DNA from: a bacterium
GTDB lineage: Bacteria > JAJVIF01
Reading direction: 5' to 3'
Length of the DNA: 64,000 nt
NCBI GenBank assembly: GCA_022072165.1
Contig: JAJVIF010000004.1
Coordinates: 126,262-190,261, forward strand
How positions within the stretch are numbered: position 1 is the first letter of the stretch; every line of letters begins with the position of its first letter. Below are positions 4,188 to 59,731 of this stretch, piece by piece. The notes under the pieces are model-generated. The model was not told the DNA's origin, made no database searches, and saw only the letters and a list, made by a program, of their open reading frames with translations. The position numbers and the translations under genes were made by a program.

Positions 4188-5744
4188 ATGCCCTTCGAAG
4201 TGACCTTCGATGACCAGCCCTATCCCCTGCCACCGGAGTTGGTGCCACCCCCCTTAGGGTTGCTGCCCGCCGATGAGGGGCCAGATAAACTCGCCCTGTT
4301 TGAAGCGCTTGGGCGGCTACAGCGCGACCTCTCCCGGCTCTCCGGACGCCTCCAGCTCAACATCAAGAGTCAGCAGGAAGGGCAGATGAAGGTCGAGGAA
4401 GCGATGGGGGCTCTGGAGTCCCGCTTCCGCGAAGCGAGCCTGGTGAAGCCCCCGCCACCCCCGGTCGTGACTGGTGGTGGGGCGAGCCTCGAACAGTTGA
4501 CCCCCCATCTGGCGAAGCTGAGCGAGCAGCTGGTCGGCATCCAGCGGAAGGTCAATCCCCTCAGCGAGCAGCTCGAAGCGGTGAAGGGGAGTTACAGGGA
4601 GAAGGTCGAGGAGAGTCAAATCGAGCGGATTCTCCCGGTCCTCGACTCCTTCGAGCGCCTCTTCGAGCAGGCGGGTCAGAGTGAAGACCCGAAGATGCAG
4701 AAGTGGCTCGAAGGAGTCCGGATGATCTACAACCAGCTGCGCAGCTTCCTGCGAGGTCAGGGGGTCGAGGAGATTCCGGCTCTGGGTGAGGTGTTTGATC
4801 CGAAGCTCTTCGCAGCGGTCGGGACCGACCCTACGGATGCGTATCCGCCGAACGTGGTCAGCCGGGTCGGTCGGACTGGGTATCGCCGTCAGACCGAATC
4901 GGGTACGAAAATCCTGCGAGTCCCGGAAGTCTTTGTGGCCAAGCCTCCGACGGAAGCGATGCGCCTCGATGAGTCGCAGCTGACCCGGGCGGAAATCCTG
5001 GAGCAGCAGCGTCGGGAGGATGCGGGGGAAGTTTCTGCGTCATCATCGTCGACGTCTGCGCCTCCGCCAGCGACTGCTGCACCACCTGCACCACTCATCG
5101 CTGCCCCACCGGCCCCATCACCAGCGCCTGTCGTGATGACGGAGCCTGCACCGGAGCCACCACCAGCGTTAGTTGCAGAATCTGTAGCAGAGCCAGCCGC
5201 CGCCGAGGATCTGTTACCCGATCCTGCGACTCTCACCATTGGTCCGGGGGAGGACAAGTTTGCCGACATCCGGGCGAAGGCGGAAGCCGCGCTCAAAGGG
5301 CTGTTCGAGCCCGCCGCGCATCTGGAGTCCGCCCATCCGACCCCGGTGGCGGAGCCGCCAGCACCATCCGTGTCGCCATCGCAGCAGACCAGCTTCGCTG
5401 GCTGGGGTGGTCTTGGGACCGAAGCGACTGTGCCGGACACGCCACCGCAGATGCCAGCAGTCGAGGGAGGAGTCCCGATGGATGCACCGCCGCTGGAAGG
5501 GGGAGGCGAGGAGTACTACGCCTCCGGGGATGGGTTGTATGAACTCCGGATGGCGCGGGGTCTGAGCCTCGCGGACTTCTGGGGACATGCGTTCGGCAAG
5601 CAGTTGGGTGACCAGCAACTGATGGACCTGGGGGAAGCGGTCGAGCGGGAAGAGGAGTGTATCGATGAGAAGGAGCTGCGTCGGCTGGCTCAGGGTCTGG
5701 GACTGACCGTCGAGGACCTGCTGCCACTGCTCCGTCGGGAGTAA
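4188..5744 (+). CDS. GrpE-domain fusion protein
   Basis: A 518-residue protein built from an N-terminal coiled-coil (about 28-140), a GrpE-like nucleotide-exchange region (about 142-250, with the family pattern ILPVLDSFERLF, GVEEIPALGEVFDPKLFAAVG and a final beta domain), a long Pro/Ala/Ser linker (about 285-440) and a C-terminal helical segment (about 447-518) resembling an XRE-type helix-turn-helix. Ordinary GrpE is about 200 residues, so the tail is unusual. GrpE releases ADP from DnaK, but no dnaK or dnaJ is nearby, so a specialised co-chaperone or regulator is possible. The ATG at 4188 is chosen because a -10 box sits just ahead of it; the frame is open 44 codons further upstream. Confidence 0.75.
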   Translation: MPFEVTFDDQPYPLPPELVPPPLGLLPADEGPDKLALFEALGRLQRDLSRLSGRLQLNIKSQQEGQMKVEEAMGALESRFREASLVKPPPPPVVTGGGASLEQLTPHLAKLSEQLVGIQRKVNPLSEQLEAVKGSYREKVEESQIERILPVLDSFERLFEQAGQSEDPKMQKWLEGVRMIYNQLRSFLRGQGVEEIPALGEVFDPKLFAAVGTDPTDAYPPNVVSRVGRTGYRRQTESGTKILRVPEVFVAKPPTEAMRLDESQLTRAEILEQQRREDAGEVSASSSSTSAPPPATAAPPAPLIAAPPAPSPAPVVMTEPAPEPPPALVAESVAEPAAAEDLLPDPATLTIGPGEDKFADIRAKAEAALKGLFEPAAHLESAHPTPVAEPPAPSVSPSQQTSFAGWGGLGTEATVPDTPPQMPAVEGGVPMDAPPLEGGGEEYYASGDGLYELRMARGLSLADFWGHAFGKQLGDQQLMDLGEAVEREEECIDEKELRRLAQGLGLTVEDLLPLLRRE

Positions 5745-5769
5745 ACTGGTTCACGAGGAGGACGTCGAC

Positions 5770-6468
5770 GTGGAAACGCTGATCGGACAGGGCGCATACA
5801 CGTTGCGTGAAGCCGGGCGCATCCTCGGACGTCCGAAGCGTTGGGTCGAGGGCTGGCTGAAGTCGTTAGACCGCACCAAATCCGGTGTACTGCAGGACCG
5901 TTGGGTGTTTGAAGATGTTCGTCTGCTCACTTTTGCAGATTTAATCGAGCTATACCTGATTTCGGAATTCCAGGAGGTCGGGATCAAACGTGCTGTCATC
6001 AGAAAGGCAGCACAGACTCTGACCGAGCGCTACAACTCGCCGCACCCCTTCTCCCTGCGTGCCTGTTTCGCCGATGTGCAGGCGATCTTTTTTAAGTATC
6101 AGGGCGTTCAGGGTGAGTTGAATGAGGATGCTTCCGGCCGGAAGGGACAGCTGGTGATCCCGGCACTTCTGGATGTCATCAGGCATGTCGAAACTCGGCT
6201 GGAGTTTGATGCGGATGGGAAAGCAATTCGGTTCTGGCCGATGGCTACCGGCACTAAGCGTGGTTTGGTGGTGCTGGATCCGATGCGCCAGATGGGGCGA
6301 CCAATCGTGGCGGCCTGCGGCGTTTCCACCCGGGTGCTGGACCTGGCTGTTAAAGCCGAGGGTGTGGAGTATCTGAACGACATCGCGAAGTCCTATCGGG
6401 TGTCCCCTGCTGATGTCCGTGCGGCCGTTGAGTATGAGGAATCATTGCTGCACCGCTCCGCTGCATGA
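5770..6468 (+). CDS. DUF433-family antitoxin
   Basis: A 232-residue protein matching the long form of DUF433, the predicted antitoxin partner of PIN-like (DUF5615/VapC45-type) toxins. The N-terminus carries the family opening (GQGAYTLREAGRILG) and a MerR-like helix-turn-helix around residues 10-30. The middle has the FADLIELYLISEFQEVGIKRAVIRKAA pattern in two parts, and the C-terminal DUF433 repeat ends with VSPADVRAAVEYEESL. The GTG start has a GAGGAGG site. It overlaps the toxin start by four bases (ATGA), implying translational coupling. Such antitoxins usually bind their own promoter. Confidence 0.82.
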   Translation: METLIGQGAYTLREAGRILGRPKRWVEGWLKSLDRTKSGVLQDRWVFEDVRLLTFADLIELYLISEFQEVGIKRAVIRKAAQTLTERYNSPHPFSLRACFADVQAIFFKYQGVQGELNEDASGRKGQLVIPALLDVIRHVETRLEFDADGKAIRFWPMATGTKRGLVVLDPMRQMGRPIVAACGVSTRVLDLAVKAEGVEYLNDIAKSYRVSPADVRAAVEYEESLLHRSAA

Positions 6469-54406: not shown

Positions 54407-57400
54407 CTAGTAGGCGACGACCAGGATGTCGTCGATGCTCCACCCGATGTGGGAGGGGTGCTGCGCCCACTCATCACCTGCAAAGCCGAACTGCAGCACG
54501 GGCTGAGTCATGTTCCGTGCGGGTGTGAGGTCGAAGACGCTGCGGGTCCAGTCAGGAGCCCCGGAGCCAGGGACGCGATAGTCGCCCGCAAGGAAATGCA
54601 TTTTGGGAATCTGTTGCTCCGGCTTGCGGCTGGAGACCGGCCAGTTCTGTTGATCCAGGAAGGGATTGACACCCGGCGCGGCGGAGTCGTAGCCCTTGCC
54701 ATCGATGATGGGGAGGTCGACCAGCTTGTTGAAGCGATTCGCTTCCCAGTCCGCGTGGGGCGTGACACAGACATAGCCCATATCTGCGGCGACCTCGACC
54801 CCCTGGTTGGGGTCGTAGTAGGTCTCCATCTGGTACTTATGCCAGAGTTGCATCTGCCGGAAAGTGACCCCGGAGAAGGGATTGGAGTCCAGATCAGTGA
54901 AGAGTTGCGGACCGAAACTGTTCCAGTAGCCATCATCGATGAAGTCATCGAAGTTGCTGCCCGCGGCATACGGGGCGTGGTTAGTGGGACCGTAGCCGCC
55001 CGAGGCGATGTCGGCAGACTCATCCAGACAGTGGGAGCCGGTGTTGCCGAGGTTGGTGGCGATCTCAAAGCCATAGTTGAAGGCGGTGAGGTCCGGGTAG
55101 GCCAGGGCATTCACCAGTCCCCAGGAGAAGCCGGAGCGGGTGCCACGGAAGGTCCCGCCGGTGAGCTGGGTCATTCCTTCGAAATCGTTGACGTAGACGA
55201 AGACCCGATTGGAGTCGAGGCTGCTCAGGATCGAGCTCCCCGGTCCCTGGGAAACTGTCCGCACCACATACATGTAGTACTTGTTGGTGGTGGGGAAGCC
55301 GCTGGCGCTCCAGGAGTTCTCCGTCCAGGTGGTATCGGTGAGGACCTCGTTGGCGTCGATCTGATTGTCGCCATCCAGGTCGTGCATCAGCCGCCAGGTA
55401 TTGTCGGGGCCGACCCGGGTCGAGCGCCAGACGGCATAGCCGAGCAGACAGCCGTTGGGATCCGGTGGCGCGGTCCAGGCAAGGGTGATGGGATTGGTGC
55501 TGTAAGGGGGTGTCGGCCAGTTGCTCATCCGGAACGAGGATGGGGCCTGGAGGGGTTCCGGGCAGTTCTGTTGCGGCGCCGGATTCACCGTGATGACGAT
55601 GTCCTCGATGTCAGTCGCGCCATGGGTGTCTTTGACCCGCAGGGAGGCGGTGATCTGAATCGGGGCGGTTCCGGTGTTGGTGTAGGTCGTTTTCGCGCGA
55701 TTGGGCAGGGTGTTCACGGAGTCAGTGTATGTTGCGCCATTGGCGAGATCGTAGTCCCAGGCATACTCCACGACTTTGTCCGGGGCCGGGTCGGGGTCAT
55801 AGGAATTGGAGTCCAGGAACTCCACGAGTTCGCCGGAATCGACGGTCGTTTTGATGGCTTCTGCCACCGCCACGGGTGGTCGATTGCCGGCGGTCGGCTC
55901 CGGATTCACCGTGATGACGATGTCTTCGGTATCGCTCGCCCCATTGGTGTCGGTGACCCGGAGGGACGCAGTGATTTCGATAGGTGCGGTGGTGCTGTTG
56001 GTGTAGGTGGCGAAGGCGACATTGGGGGTCGCGGAGACACTGTCGGTGTAGGTGCGGCCGTTGCTGACATCGAAGTCCCATTCATACAGGACCACGGAGT
56101 CGCCAGGATCCGGGTCATAGGACTGGCCATCGCGAAGATTCACCGGGTTGCCCGAAGCGACCGGATTGGGGGTCGCGCTGGTGACCGCCACTGGGGGATT
56201 GTTCCCCGCCACTGGGGGCTGCACCTGGATGATGAGGTCTTCCGTATCGGTCGCCCCGTGGGCATCGGTGACCCGCAGCGAGGCCGTAACTTGAATGGGA
56301 GTGGACTGCGTATTGATGTACTGGGTGATGGCGGCGTTGGGGGAGCTGCTGATGCTGTCCACGTAGGTGCGTCCGTTGCTGACATCGAAGTCCCACTCGT
56401 ACTTCACGATGCTGTCGCCCGGATCGTTGTCGTAGGAGTTGATGTCGATCAACTGAATGTCTGCGCCGGAGGCGACCGGATTCGGGGTGGCATCGGCGAC
56501 GGCCACGGGCGGTGTGTTGTTGCCGGTGAACTCGTCCACTTTCACACGGACTACCTGCCAGGTGCAAAAGCTGTAGTAGATCTCGCCTGGTGTGGCAGTC
56601 AGGCGGAAGCCGGTGCCGTCGATGGAGTCGCTGACGCTCACCAGCCCGAGATACTCCCCGGGAGGGGCGCCGAATTCATTGCGGATGGTCCACTCATAGC
56701 GATAGGGATCGTTGAGGGTCCCCTGACCGCTTAAGCGCGGCAGTTCCTGGACACCGTTCATCAGGCCGGTCAACTCGCCGGTGACCCGGGCGACCTCGCT
56801 GGTCACCGGAATCTCGCTTGGCTTGTTCAGACTACCGTAGGTGGGGCTGCCGGTGAGTCCCGCCTGCCAGTCTTCGACTTCGATGGCGACCGTCAGGGTT
56901 TTGGACGGCGGGTCGACTGATGAAAAAGTACCGTTCACCTGCGCCTGGACCCGGTACGCCTCGGCCTGATTGAACGCGGGCAGGAAGTAGACCGGGCTGG
57001 TGCGGGAGCCGGGTGAGCCAGGAAAATCGCGAGTCTGGGCAAAGGTGGCGGAGACCCCGTAGCTGGCCTCGATGACGATGATCACCCGCAATTGAGCCGC
57101 CTGCCCCTGGGGCATCCGGAAGGCAAAGCGCTTGATGTCCCGGACAGGAGTCTGGGAAAAGCGGTGATTCGTGATGGGGAAGCCGTTGCGAGTGGGGCTG
57201 GGGTCGTTTTCCGTGAAGAATTTGATGTAGGGGTTGACGGTGCCCTTGATGTCGAGGGGCGGGTTGAAGTAGCGCGTGTCCTCGACTTTGCGATCGAAAT
57301 GATGGGTGTAGCCATCGGCGTTCATCAGGAGATCGAAATTGCCCTGCACGACCCGGTCGCCGGTGCCATCGCCATTGACATGAATCCGGGGTGAGAGCAG

Positions 57401-57859
57401 GAACGCCGTGTGCCCTTCGGTAATGACGATGGCGCGGGTGTCGAAGACATCGAGGTCGCGGCGCTTGTCGGTGTTTGGGAAGGGATGGCGGAGTCCGAAG
57501 TCGACCAGCAGATTGCCATCGGGGTCCTTGCTGAGGGCCGTGACTTCGAAGCAGTCGGTGCAGGGGGAATCGGTCAGATAGGGGGAGATGTCGGGGACAT
57601 AGAGATCGCCAAAGGCGGCCCCGGTGTGAGCCGGTGGAATGGGAGTCAGCGCGACCGTGCCCCGTTCAAAGTCGAGGACCGCGTCGAAGAGTCCCAGAGT
57701 CCCGGTGCCAGCATCAGCCATCCGGCTGGCAGTTGCGAGCTCTGCGGTTGGCAGTAGCGCCGGGTTCTGCGAAGCCGGACTTACCGGAACCCGTCCGCCT
57801 GTGTTGCAGGCGGCGAGCAGGAGGAGTGGCAGAGTCAGGAGCCAGGGCAGGTATCGCAT
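54407..57859 (-). CDS. Large PKD-repeat surface lipoprotein
   Basis: An 1150-residue lipoprotein (lipobox LAAC). Its N-terminal 450 residues share landmarks with the FG-GAP lipoprotein at 17401-20853 (FGLRHPFPN, LLMNADGYTHH, YFLPAFNQAEAYRV, IEVEDWQAG, GEYLGLVSVSDS, FCTWQVVRVKV). Then come three PKD domains, each with YEWDFDVSNGRTYVDS or YAWDYDLANGATYTDS, a fibronectin-type region (PITLAWTAPPDPNGCLLGYAVWRS, in part) and a C-terminal jelly-roll-like region ending GWSIDDILVVAY. A GGAGG site and a TATACT box upstream support the start. Likely surface binding or adhesion. Confidence 0.85.
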   Translation of the reverse strand: MRYLPWLLTLPLLLLAACNTGGRVPVSPASQNPALLPTAELATASRMADAGTGTLGLFDAVLDFERGTVALTPIPPAHTGAAFGDLYVPDISPYLTDSPCTDCFEVTALSKDPDGNLLVDFGLRHPFPNTDKRRDLDVFDTRAIVITEGHTAFLLSPRIHVNGDGTGDRVVQGNFDLLMNADGYTHHFDRKVEDTRYFNPPLDIKGTVNPYIKFFTENDPSPTRNGFPITNHRFSQTPVRDIKRFAFRMPQGQAAQLRVIIVIEASYGVSATFAQTRDFPGSPGSRTSPVYFLPAFNQAEAYRVQAQVNGTFSSVDPPSKTLTVAIEVEDWQAGLTGSPTYGSLNKPSEIPVTSEVARVTGELTGLMNGVQELPRLSGQGTLNDPYRYEWTIRNEFGAPPGEYLGLVSVSDSIDGTGFRLTATPGEIYYSFCTWQVVRVKVDEFTGNNTPPVAVADATPNPVASGADIQLIDINSYDNDPGDSIVKYEWDFDVSNGRTYVDSISSSPNAAITQYINTQSTPIQVTASLRVTDAHGATDTEDLIIQVQPPVAGNNPPVAVTSATPNPVASGNPVNLRDGQSYDPDPGDSVVLYEWDFDVSNGRTYTDSVSATPNVAFATYTNSTTAPIEITASLRVTDTNGASDTEDIVITVNPEPTAGNRPPVAVAEAIKTTVDSGELVEFLDSNSYDPDPAPDKVVEYAWDYDLANGATYTDSVNTLPNRAKTTYTNTGTAPIQITASLRVKDTHGATDIEDIVITVNPAPQQNCPEPLQAPSSFRMSNWPTPPYSTNPITLAWTAPPDPNGCLLGYAVWRSTRVGPDNTWRLMHDLDGDNQIDANEVLTDTTWTENSWSASGFPTTNKYYMYVVRTVSQGPGSSILSSLDSNRVFVYVNDFEGMTQLTGGTFRGTRSGFSWGLVNALAYPDLTAFNYGFEIATNLGNTGSHCLDESADIASGGYGPTNHAPYAAGSNFDDFIDDGYWNSFGPQLFTDLDSNPFSGVTFRQMQLWHKYQMETYYDPNQGVEVAADMGYVCVTPHADWEANRFNKLVDLPIIDGKGYDSAAPGVNPFLDQQNWPVSSRKPEQQIPKMHFLAGDYRVPGSGAPDWTRSVFDLTPARNMTQPVLQFGFAGDEWAQHPSHIGWSIDDILVVAY

Positions 57860-57935: not shown

Positions 57936-58048
57936 GCGTGAGTTGGGGGCGGATTTACTGGTGAAATCTGGTGGAGTCAGGGTCGGGTAGTGAGGATAAC
58001 GGGAACATCCAGACTCCACATGTCCCGGTCATCGCTCACCAGGATGAG

Positions 58049-58510
58049 CTACTGGGTGCGGCAGATCATCGCCAGGCAGACGTCGTTAAAGTCTGCCTGA
58101 TTCAGACTCGTGGCTGCAGACAAGGCGACCAGTTCCGATCGACCAAGCGAGAGTGTCATGGCACTGGTGAGTGCGCAGACTTGCGTCAGTGCATGGCTGG
58201 CATCTTGCCTTGCATCCGCAGAGTCGGAATGCGCTCGCCACCGCTTGAAGGATTGTGTGGCCCAACCAGAATTGTTGAAGCTGCGGCGCAGGATAACGTT
58301 CGCAATCTCTGACATGACCAGCAAGTCAGCTAACAAGGTGCTGCCAGCGACTTGGCAGCGGCTAAGGAAGACCGAAGAATCTGTCGTGGCTCTTGCGGGT
58401 GAGGACCGAAAAGAGGGAGCCACAATCGGGAGCCAGATGTTCGTGTCGAAGAGGAATCGATGTTCGCTGGTCGAGATAAACGTGGCGGCGTCGTGGACCA
58501 CAGGGGGCAC
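58049..58510 (-). CDS. PIN-domain nuclease, interrupted by an in-frame TAG
   Basis: A 153-residue frame of PIN fold, predicted metal-dependent ribonuclease. Acidic residues are D22 (FLFDTNIWL), E68 (MSEIAN) and D140/D143 (NQADFNDV). The TAG at 58049-58051 stops it before the last strand, but the same frame continues for 23 codons (LILVSDDRDMW...) to TGA at 57977, restoring the typical PIN ending with the fourth acidic site. Full length would be about 176 residues. The GTG start shares one base with the stop of the DUF4325 gene. It is the third gene of the STAS-HATPase operon and could be disabled or made in a short form. Confidence 0.65.
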   Translation of the reverse strand: MPPVVHDAATFISTSEHRFLFDTNIWLPIVAPSFRSSPARATTDSSVFLSRCQVAGSTLLADLLVMSEIANVILRRSFNNSGWATQSFKRWRAHSDSADARQDASHALTQVCALTSAMTLSLGRSELVALSAATSLNQADFNDVCLAMICRTQ

Positions 58511-58860
58511 TATGCTGCTTCCTCCTGTGCAGCGCGCCAGGCCGCTTCAGCCGCCTCCGGGTTCCTGAAGTACTCAATGGCGTTCTCGCGAACACGTTCT
58601 ACCAGCCCCTGCTGGAAGCTGCTGAGATTCTCCAGCTGTAGCAGGCTGCTGATCAGCTCAGGAGTAAACTCCTCATAGAGTGCGCCAATGGCCCCATTCA
58701 GGAAGGCAGATGTCACGATTTCCAGGCCCGTGAAATCCAGAGTGATCATCTCGCCCTGACGCAGCGCGTCACGGATTTGCTGAGCCAGCTTGTCGCCATC
58801 GACACGCGAGACTGCGTAAGCCGAGTTGATGAGCGAAGCGATGCGCAGTTGTCGGACCAT
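58510..58860 (-). CDS. STAS-like protein (DUF4325)
   Basis: A 116-residue protein of the STAS-like DUF4325 family: DGDKLAQQIRDALRQGEMITLDFTGLEIVTSAFLNGAIGALYEEF (in part), with the strand-loop LDFTGLEIVTSAFLN aligned to the phosphorylatable loop of anti-anti-sigma factors. A helical tail follows. The ATG at 58860 is chosen because the open frame further upstream lies inside the HATPase gene. TAAAAT lies ten bases upstream. DUF4325 genes commonly accompany an ATP-binding partner, which is present here. Confidence 0.75.
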   Translation of the reverse strand: MVRQLRIASLINSAYAVSRVDGDKLAQQIRDALRQGEMITLDFTGLEIVTSAFLNGAIGALYEEFTPELISSLLQLENLSSFQQGLVERVRENAIEYFRNPEAAEAAWRAAQEEAA

Positions 58861-58889
58861 AGCAAGAGTAATTTTATCAGAAGCCACAA

Positions 58890-59717
58890 TTACGGACGGG
58901 GAGTAGCGGGAAGCGTTCTGAGTTCGAGCACGACCAGGGTGCCCGGAAAGCGATCGGCTATGGAAGTGCAGGAACCCGCGTCCCCATCTTGCATGTAGAG
59001 CGCTAAGCCGGAAAGGATGCACAAGCGCCCTCCATTCTGCCTGACCACTGCTGCAACGTCGGGCAATCCAATGCCCCCGATTTCCGGCAGGGAGCTAAAG
59101 CCTCGCTGTAGCGCCCAGTCGAGGGCCTGGACAGCAGTCAAAGCACGCCGATCTTGCCGGCTTTGCTGAACGGATCCTGGAATGGTCACTCCCAGATCAC
59201 ACACGGAGAAGCCTACAAGGCGGACATTGGGATAGTGCTGGCCGGAGGCCAGACAACCGGCAGCGGATTGGGCATGGCGGTCCACATTTGAGAAGACTTC
59301 GCACAGGCTGGCCAGGAGGGGCTCCCGGACTTCCTGAGTCAGTGTCGGTAGCTCATTGCGCACGAATCCCTCAAGCAGGTACTTTGCAGCATCGGAGGTC
59401 AGCCCGGCGGTGCTGTCCCAGACCCGGTACTGAATGCTCGTGTGGTACCGGTCCTCAGTAAAACTCTCAGTAAAGCCGATTTGGCTGAGGGCATGGGCGA
59501 CCTGGGATGACATCCCCGACAGTTGTCCTTGCGATCCCGCTCCGGCCAGTCTTTTGAGTGCTCCCAGCCCTGCACACAAGTGCGCTGAAATCCAGGTTGT
59601 CTGCCTGGCATCGAGATGAATCACTGCCGGCTGTTCCGCAAGCACGCTGGCGGCGGCGGCGGCGAGCCATCGCAAGCTGGCTTCATCGTCCTTGAATTGC
59701 TGCGGCAGCTGAATCAT
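58890..59717 (-). CDS. STAS-like and HATPase fusion (RsbW-type ATP-binding protein)
   Basis: A 275-residue protein. Residues about 1-85 look like a STAS-type strand-helix region (VIHLDARQTTWISAHLCAGLGAL, in part). Residues about 140-260 are a GHKL ATPase domain with N box LCEVFSNVDRHAQS and G box EIGGIGLPDVAAVVRQNGG. There is no histidine-phosphorylation domain. RsbW-like kinases phosphorylate STAS partners; here the DUF4325 protein, 29 bases downstream, is the obvious candidate partner. TACAAT lies eight bases upstream of the ATG. The region is less GC-rich than the flagellar genes beside it. Confidence 0.78.
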   Translation of the reverse strand: MIQLPQQFKDDEASLRWLAAAAASVLAEQPAVIHLDARQTTWISAHLCAGLGALKRLAGAGSQGQLSGMSSQVAHALSQIGFTESFTEDRYHTSIQYRVWDSTAGLTSDAAKYLLEGFVRNELPTLTQEVREPLLASLCEVFSNVDRHAQSAAGCLASGQHYPNVRLVGFSVCDLGVTIPGSVQQSRQDRRALTAVQALDWALQRGFSSLPEIGGIGLPDVAAVVRQNGGRLCILSGLALYMQDGDAGSCTSIADRFPGTLVVLELRTLPATPRP

Positions 59718-59725
59718 GTCCAGGG

Positions 59726-59731
59726 ATTGTA
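59726..59731 (-). promoter_or_regulatory. -10 box TACAAT abutting the STAS-HATPase start
   Basis: CATACAAT ends eight bases before the ATG at 59717, no Shine-Dalgarno being present; a leaderless-type promoter for the three-gene operon. Confidence 0.5.

What the first reader, a model, noticed from the sequence alone, without database searches (positions are those of the whole stretch)
57977..59731. Compact STAS-HATPase / DUF4325 / PIN operon: candidate switchable nuclease system
Three tightly packed minus-strand genes encode an RsbW-like ATPase with its own STAS-like N-terminus, a STAS-like DUF4325 protein, and a PIN-fold nuclease. The last two share a base (TAGTG). Kinase/anti-anti-sigma logic normally controls sigma factors, and no sigma factor is present here. 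The output instead appears to be a ribonuclease. This suggests a partner-switching toxin-antitoxin or defence module (inference). The block is less GC-rich than the flagellar genes beside it.
Basis: partly seen in the sequence, partly recalled or inferred. Interest (0 to 1): 0.75.

Follow-up and report, generated by a model that had tools for sequence, protein, structure and literature searches.

The report
VapKSC-type toxin switch, toxin gene broken
This is a divergent copy of VapKSC, a recently published bacterial switch in which a kinase frees a toxic RNA-cutting enzyme when the cell is damaged or infected; here the toxin gene is cut short by a stop codon, so the copy is probably disarmed and the find is close to ordinary.

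Summary
The three minus-strand genes are real. They form a VapKSC operon: a STAS-GHKL kinase (VapK), a STAS/DUF4325 antitoxin (VapS) and a PIN toxin (VapC), described by Chambers et al., EMBO J 2026 (PMC13373217). The window VapS alone matches the solved Escherichia VapS (PDB 9Z7O) at 1e-9. A PIN profile from this operon family matches VapC of the same entry at 2e-13. Of 80 genome loci found with the kinase, 77 carry kinase, DUF4325 and PIN in that order. The other three run off the contig before the missing part. The last 23 codons, which encode the invariant catalytic Asp161 and the last sheet strands, lie behind it. VapK and VapS keep the residues that count: Glu140, Asn144, the G1/G2 glycines, the aromatic Trp42 and the phospho-acceptor Ser54. 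The likeliest reading is a horizontally acquired, divergent VapKSC whose toxin has been lost by nonsense mutation. Additions to the published picture are modest: near-perfect linkage, instances in archaeal MAGs, and several independently broken copies.

The parts
58890..59717 (-). VapK-like kinase, 275 aa: N-terminal STAS-like domain (about 1-100) and GHKL ATPase/kinase domain (about 105-268)
   Evidence: Order and homology to 66 VapKSC kinases. E140, N144, H148, D174, G176 and G215xG217L invariant; W42 is at the aromatic position, W/F in 66 of 68. AF2 model pLDDT 88.5, best PDB hit SpoIIAB.
58510..58887 (-). VapS-like antitoxin (STAS-like, DUF4325), about 125 aa from the GTG at 58887
   Evidence: PF14213 3.7e-14; phmmer to PDB 9Z7O 'Escherichia VapS' 1.1e-9; Ser at the phospho-acceptor position (S54 of the aligned fragment), S/T in 68 of 68.
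57977..58510 (-). vapC-like PIN toxin gene, full homologous extent including the stretch behind the internal stop
   Evidence: Profile hit 3.1e-21 spanning 12-177 of 182 positions with one internal TAG; family profiles match PDB 9Z7O 'Escherichia VapC' at 1.8e-13 and 7.3e-17.
58049..58510 (-). open part of vapC, 153 aa: keeps D22, E68, D140, D143
58049..58051 (-). in-frame premature TAG at a position that is mostly N or G in relatives
57977..58048 (-). orphaned C-terminus of vapC (LILVSDDRDMWSLDVPVILTTRP, stop): carries invariant D161 and near-invariant D163 and the last two sheet strands

Best explanation
This is a VapKSC operon. By homology, VapS (DUF4325) binds the PIN nuclease VapC and keeps it silent. 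When the kinase VapK is activated (inferred by the paper's authors: by single-stranded DNA from damage or phage), it phosphorylates the conserved Ser/Thr of VapS, VapC is released and cuts RNA, and growth stops. In this copy vapK and vapS look functional, but vapC carries a nonsense codon before its last catalytic aspartate. The product of this copy is probably an inactive toxin fragment: a disarmed, probably horizontally acquired module beside, and unrelated to, the flagellar genes. Shown here: gene order, homology, conserved residues and the stop codon. Shown in the paper for Escherichia: inhibition, the phosphomimic effect and phage protection. Inferred: all function in this organism, and that the stop abolishes activity.
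For: Three-gene order in 77 of 80 kinase-ascertained loci from many phyla; the other 3 run off contig ends. In 385 diverse genomes, all seven PIN-profile hits with E below 1e-10 and a readable neighbourhood lie beside DUF4325; one further hit is a fragment at a contig end (with 33, 46). Window VapS hits only PDB 9Z7O VapS; PIN profiles hit 9Z7O VapC first. Phospho-acceptor S/T in 68/68 VapS; E140, N144, D174, G176, G215 and G217 in 68/68 VapK; aromatic W/F in 66/68, W in the window. SpoIIAB is the best structural match of the VapK model. TAG confirmed twice; D161, lost behind it, is invariant in 67/67. No PylS gene in this genome. Mechanism from PMC13373217.
Against: The window copy is very divergent: branch 3.77 against a median of 0.26 for VapK, 4.93 against 0.44 for VapC. 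Its VapK departs from 18 of 49 near-invariant columns, including G178T in the G1 box and F224V. The comparison set was chosen by conserved motifs and so exaggerates this. The 23 codons behind the stop stay open and homologous, so the stop may be very recent, leaky or an assembly error. No function was tested.
Confidence: 0.8

Rival explanations
1. The locus is a working VapKSC: the TAG is an assembly error, or is read through at some rate, so that full-length VapC is made.
For: The frame behind the TAG is open and matches the conserved C-terminus, including D161 and D163. With the TAG read as a residue the protein folds confidently as a PIN domain (pLDDT 92.5) with VapC matches in the PDB.
Against: VapS itself ends in TAG, and no pyrrolysine synthetase was found in the genome. 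The assembly is 4 contigs at 99.1% completeness with intact neighbouring genes. Other copies have independently broken genes.
Confidence: 0.17
2. The whole operon is decaying: after loss of the toxin, VapK and VapS are no longer selected.
For: VapK is the most deviant of 68 at conserved columns. The second most deviant, L004, also has a broken vapC.
Against: Every column that is invariant among the relatives is also kept in the window VapK and VapS, including all ATP-site residues. The reference set was selected for conserved motifs, so divergence alone is weak evidence; L006 is also divergent but intact.
Confidence: 0.25
3. It is an RsbW/RsbV-type switch controlling a sigma factor or the adjacent flagellar genes, and the PIN gene is a chance neighbour.
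For: The fold resembles SpoIIAB; flhA starts 71 bp away on the other strand.
Against: The PIN gene follows the pair across phyla. In same-class genomes flhA has other upstream neighbours. VapS matches VapS of 9Z7O.
Confidence: 0.02

Closest known systems
VapKSC (Chambers et al., EMBO J 2026, PMC13373217; PDB 9Z7O)
   Same: Same three proteins in the same order, a VapS close enough to match by single-sequence search, the conserved phospho-acceptor, the kinase motifs and the aromatic at the proposed ssDNA site.
   Different: The vapC frame is broken by a TAG; the sequences are divergent; the host is an unnamed flagellated lineage outside the paper's experiments.
CapK + CapS (same paper)
   Same: STAS-GHKL kinase with a STAS substrate.
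   Different: CapK has an N-terminal HTH and CapS a C-terminal wHTH and represses transcription. Neither extension is present here (VapK 275 aa, VapS about 125 aa), and no immune operon follows.
SpoIIAB/SpoIIAA and RsbW/RsbV partner switches
   Same: GHKL serine kinase with a STAS substrate; SpoIIAB is the top fold match.
   Different: The output is a PIN nuclease rather than a sigma factor.
VapBC type II toxin-antitoxin
   Same: PIN-domain VapC toxin.
   Different: The antitoxin is a STAS protein under kinase control rather than a DNA-binding VapB.

Membership tests
VapKSC | Three-gene order STAS-GHKL kinase, STAS protein with short C-terminal region, PIN protein | tested here: met
   models of VapK and read-through VapC
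VapKSC | VapS homologous to Escherichia VapS (9Z7O) | tested here: met
   phmmer 1.1e-9 with the window sequence alone, the only PDB hit
VapKSC | Conserved Ser/Thr phospho-acceptor in VapS (S48 of Escherichia) | tested here: met
   S54 of the aligned fragment; S or T in 68 of 68
VapKSC | Aromatic residue in VapK at the ssDNA site (F54 of Escherichia VapK, W68 of CapK) | tested here: inconclusive
   W42 sits in a W/F column (66 of 68).
VapKSC | GHKL active site in VapK | tested here: met
   E140, N144, D174, G176, G215, G217 present; G178 is T here, as in 6 of the 68
VapKSC | Intact PIN active site in VapC | tested here: not met
   D22, E68, D140, D143 present, but D161 (67 of 67) lies behind an in-frame TAG. 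The locus is therefore filed as a homologous but interrupted VapKSC locus, not as a working one.
VapKSC | VapS neutralises VapC; VapK phosphorylates VapS; phage protection | not testable with these tools
   shown for Escherichia in PMC13373217, except direct VapK activity, which the authors could not test
CapKS | HTH on the kinase, wHTH on the STAS protein, downstream immune operon | tested here: not met
   protein lengths, Pfam, neighbours
PADLOC DrmA (DISARM) | Full-length DrmA helicase | tested here: not met
   Only 131 residues match positions 144-272 of a 1750-position model: an ATPase-region cross-match

The most novel reading that the evidence does not exclude
The interrupted vapC is kept on purpose: either rare TAG readthrough adds a second layer of control on toxin output, or the truncated, non-catalytic VapC serves as a partner or decoy for an intact VapKS switch.
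Probability: 0.05. Interest if true: 0.5.

Novelty: new member of a known kind. Interest (0 to 1): 0.25.

Why it matters
It also extends that system's range (archaeal MAGs, many candidate phyla) and gives a natural example of a copy that has probably lost its toxin while keeping kinase and antitoxin. As a discovery it is minor.

Tried and rejected
The PADLOC 'DrmA' hit on VapK was rejected as an ATPase-region cross-match. Pyrrolysine decoding of TAG: no PylS in the genome. A flagellar link: upstream neighbours of flhA differ in same-class genomes. Selective decay (toxin and kinase break, antitoxin does not): vapC breaks in L004, L063, L083, L113 and the window, vapK breaks in L005, L020 and L095, both truncated in L012/L135, no broken vapS seen. 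The numbers are too few, the searches were ascertained on vapK or DUF4325, and some breaks may be MAG errors, so no claim is made. Close relatives of the equally odd L004 copy could not be sampled (only one genome in its phylum). The seven-row alignment A6 was too diverse for the pattern search; a five-row alignment (A8) worked.

Full report
Observation. VapK-like HATPase: 58890-59717. DUF4325: ends at 58510; its best start is the GTG at 58887, 2 nt after the HATPase stop. PIN: starts at 58510 and shares a base with the DUF4325 stop. Pfam gives DUF4325 at 3.7e-14; the other two are too divergent for Pfam. The block has lower GC (0.586; GC3 about 0.66) than flhA (0.640; 0.80).

Linkage. A diverse sample of 385 genomes gave 40 with DUF4325, in several contexts. 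A seven-row PIN profile searched over the same genomes gave seven strong hits with a readable neighbourhood (G002, G037, G084, G259, G320, G384 and the window), all directly beside DUF4325; an eighth, G082, is a fragment at a contig end. A search of 84,980 species genomes with the kinase found 131 relatives. Of the 80 fetched, 77 have kinase, DUF4325 and PIN in that order and the other 3 run off the contig. Hosts include Pseudomonadota, Thermodesulfobacteriota, Nitrospirota, Planctomycetota, Chlorobiota and Bacteroidota, MAGs labelled as archaea (L055, L071, L073, L098), a Deinococcus plasmid (L006) and viral or phage-like contigs (L010, L053). The kinase tree mixes phyla: 28 label changes where 17 is the minimum. 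Desulfamplus and Nitrosomonas copies are about 0.12 apart. This suggests horizontal transfer, though binning errors cannot be excluded.

Identity. The library holds one paper that describes this operon: Chambers et al., EMBO J 2026, PMC13373217, which names it vapKSC. There VapS binds and inhibits VapC in a 2:2 complex (X-ray structure), the phosphomimic S48E abolishes inhibition and binding, and the operon protects E. coli about 100-fold against phage Bas42, depending on VapC D28, VapS S48 and VapK F54. 289 instances were listed, 36% near known defence genes. Direct activation of VapK was not shown. The PDB copy contains this structure (9Z7O). The window VapS alone hits its VapS at 1.1e-9 and nothing else; family profiles hit its VapC at 1.8e-13 and 7.3e-17 and its VapS at 3e-22.

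Residues. Against 66-67 relatives the window VapK keeps all GHKL residues (E140, N144, H148, D174, G176, GxG of the G2 box) and has W42 in a W/F column that probably corresponds to the published aromatic. VapS has Ser at the column that is S or T in 68 of 68. VapC keeps D22, E68, D140 and D143, but the invariant D161 and near-invariant D163 lie behind the TAG. The VapK model (pLDDT 88.5) has SpoIIAB as best PDB match. The read-through VapC model (pLDDT 92.5) is a PIN domain; the part behind the stop holds the strands 156-159 and 171-173. A 153-aa product would thus lack part of the core sheet and a catalytic residue. That it is inactive is inference.

State of the copy. The window copy lies on very long branches, and its VapK deviates at 18 of 49 near-invariant columns, the most of 68. 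This may reflect decay, or simply a divergent lineage, because the comparison set was chosen by conserved motifs. No PylS gene was found, so TAG is not expected to be read as pyrrolysine. Other copies carry broken vapC (L004, L063, L083, L113) or broken vapK (L005, L020, L095), or truncations of both (L012/L135). Some may be MAG errors.

Surroundings. On one side lies a large PKD-domain lipoprotein, on the other flhA and an SRP54-type GTPase (flhF-like) on the opposite strand. In two same-class genomes flhA has different upstream genes, so the location carries no functional message. A PADLOC scan of 35 main window ORFs gave no convincing defence system. In 19 relatives' flanks, defence-type genes (type I specificity subunit, OLD/GajA/PtuA-like ATPases, type III restriction, Cas1) occur among housekeeping genes. 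This agrees with the published 36%, but I had no matched control.

Verdict. This locus is a new, divergent member whose toxin gene is probably inactivated. Interest is low.

Noticed in passing
L014-L017, L019, L023, L025-L030, L032, L036, L038 (single-gene DUF4325 loci): About 340-375 aa one-gene proteins with the order winged HTH, GHKL ATPase, DUF4325. In 15 of 15 the phospho-acceptor S/T of VapS-type DUF4325 is replaced by Gln (GQ[AG]F), so a kinase, a DNA binder and a non-phosphorylatable STAS-like domain sit in one chain.
   Followed up: partly
L007, L008 (about 4575-5773), also L009, L018, L039, L040: GHKL-DUF4325 pairs without a PIN gene, for example in Streptococcus phages between lysin and a CsbD-like gene; their output is unknown.
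   Followed up: partly
L035 276-2329: A more divergent kinase-DUF4325 pair followed by a small putative membrane protein (weak VIT1-like match), possibly another output for the same switch.
   Followed up: no
L055, L071, L073, L098: VapKSC operons in MAGs labelled Methanothrix, Euryarchaeota, Methanosarcinaceae and Thermoplasmata; the paper speaks of bacterial groups only. The archaeal origin of the contigs was not checked.
   Followed up: partly
window 54407-57859: 1150-aa PKD-domain putative lipoprotein with 52 matching places in this genome and 65-97 in each of three same-class genomes: a large lineage-specific family.
   Followed up: no
L063 3-2882: VapK sits at the end of a 960-aa open frame that reaches the contig start, a possible fusion to an upstream protein.
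   Followed up: no
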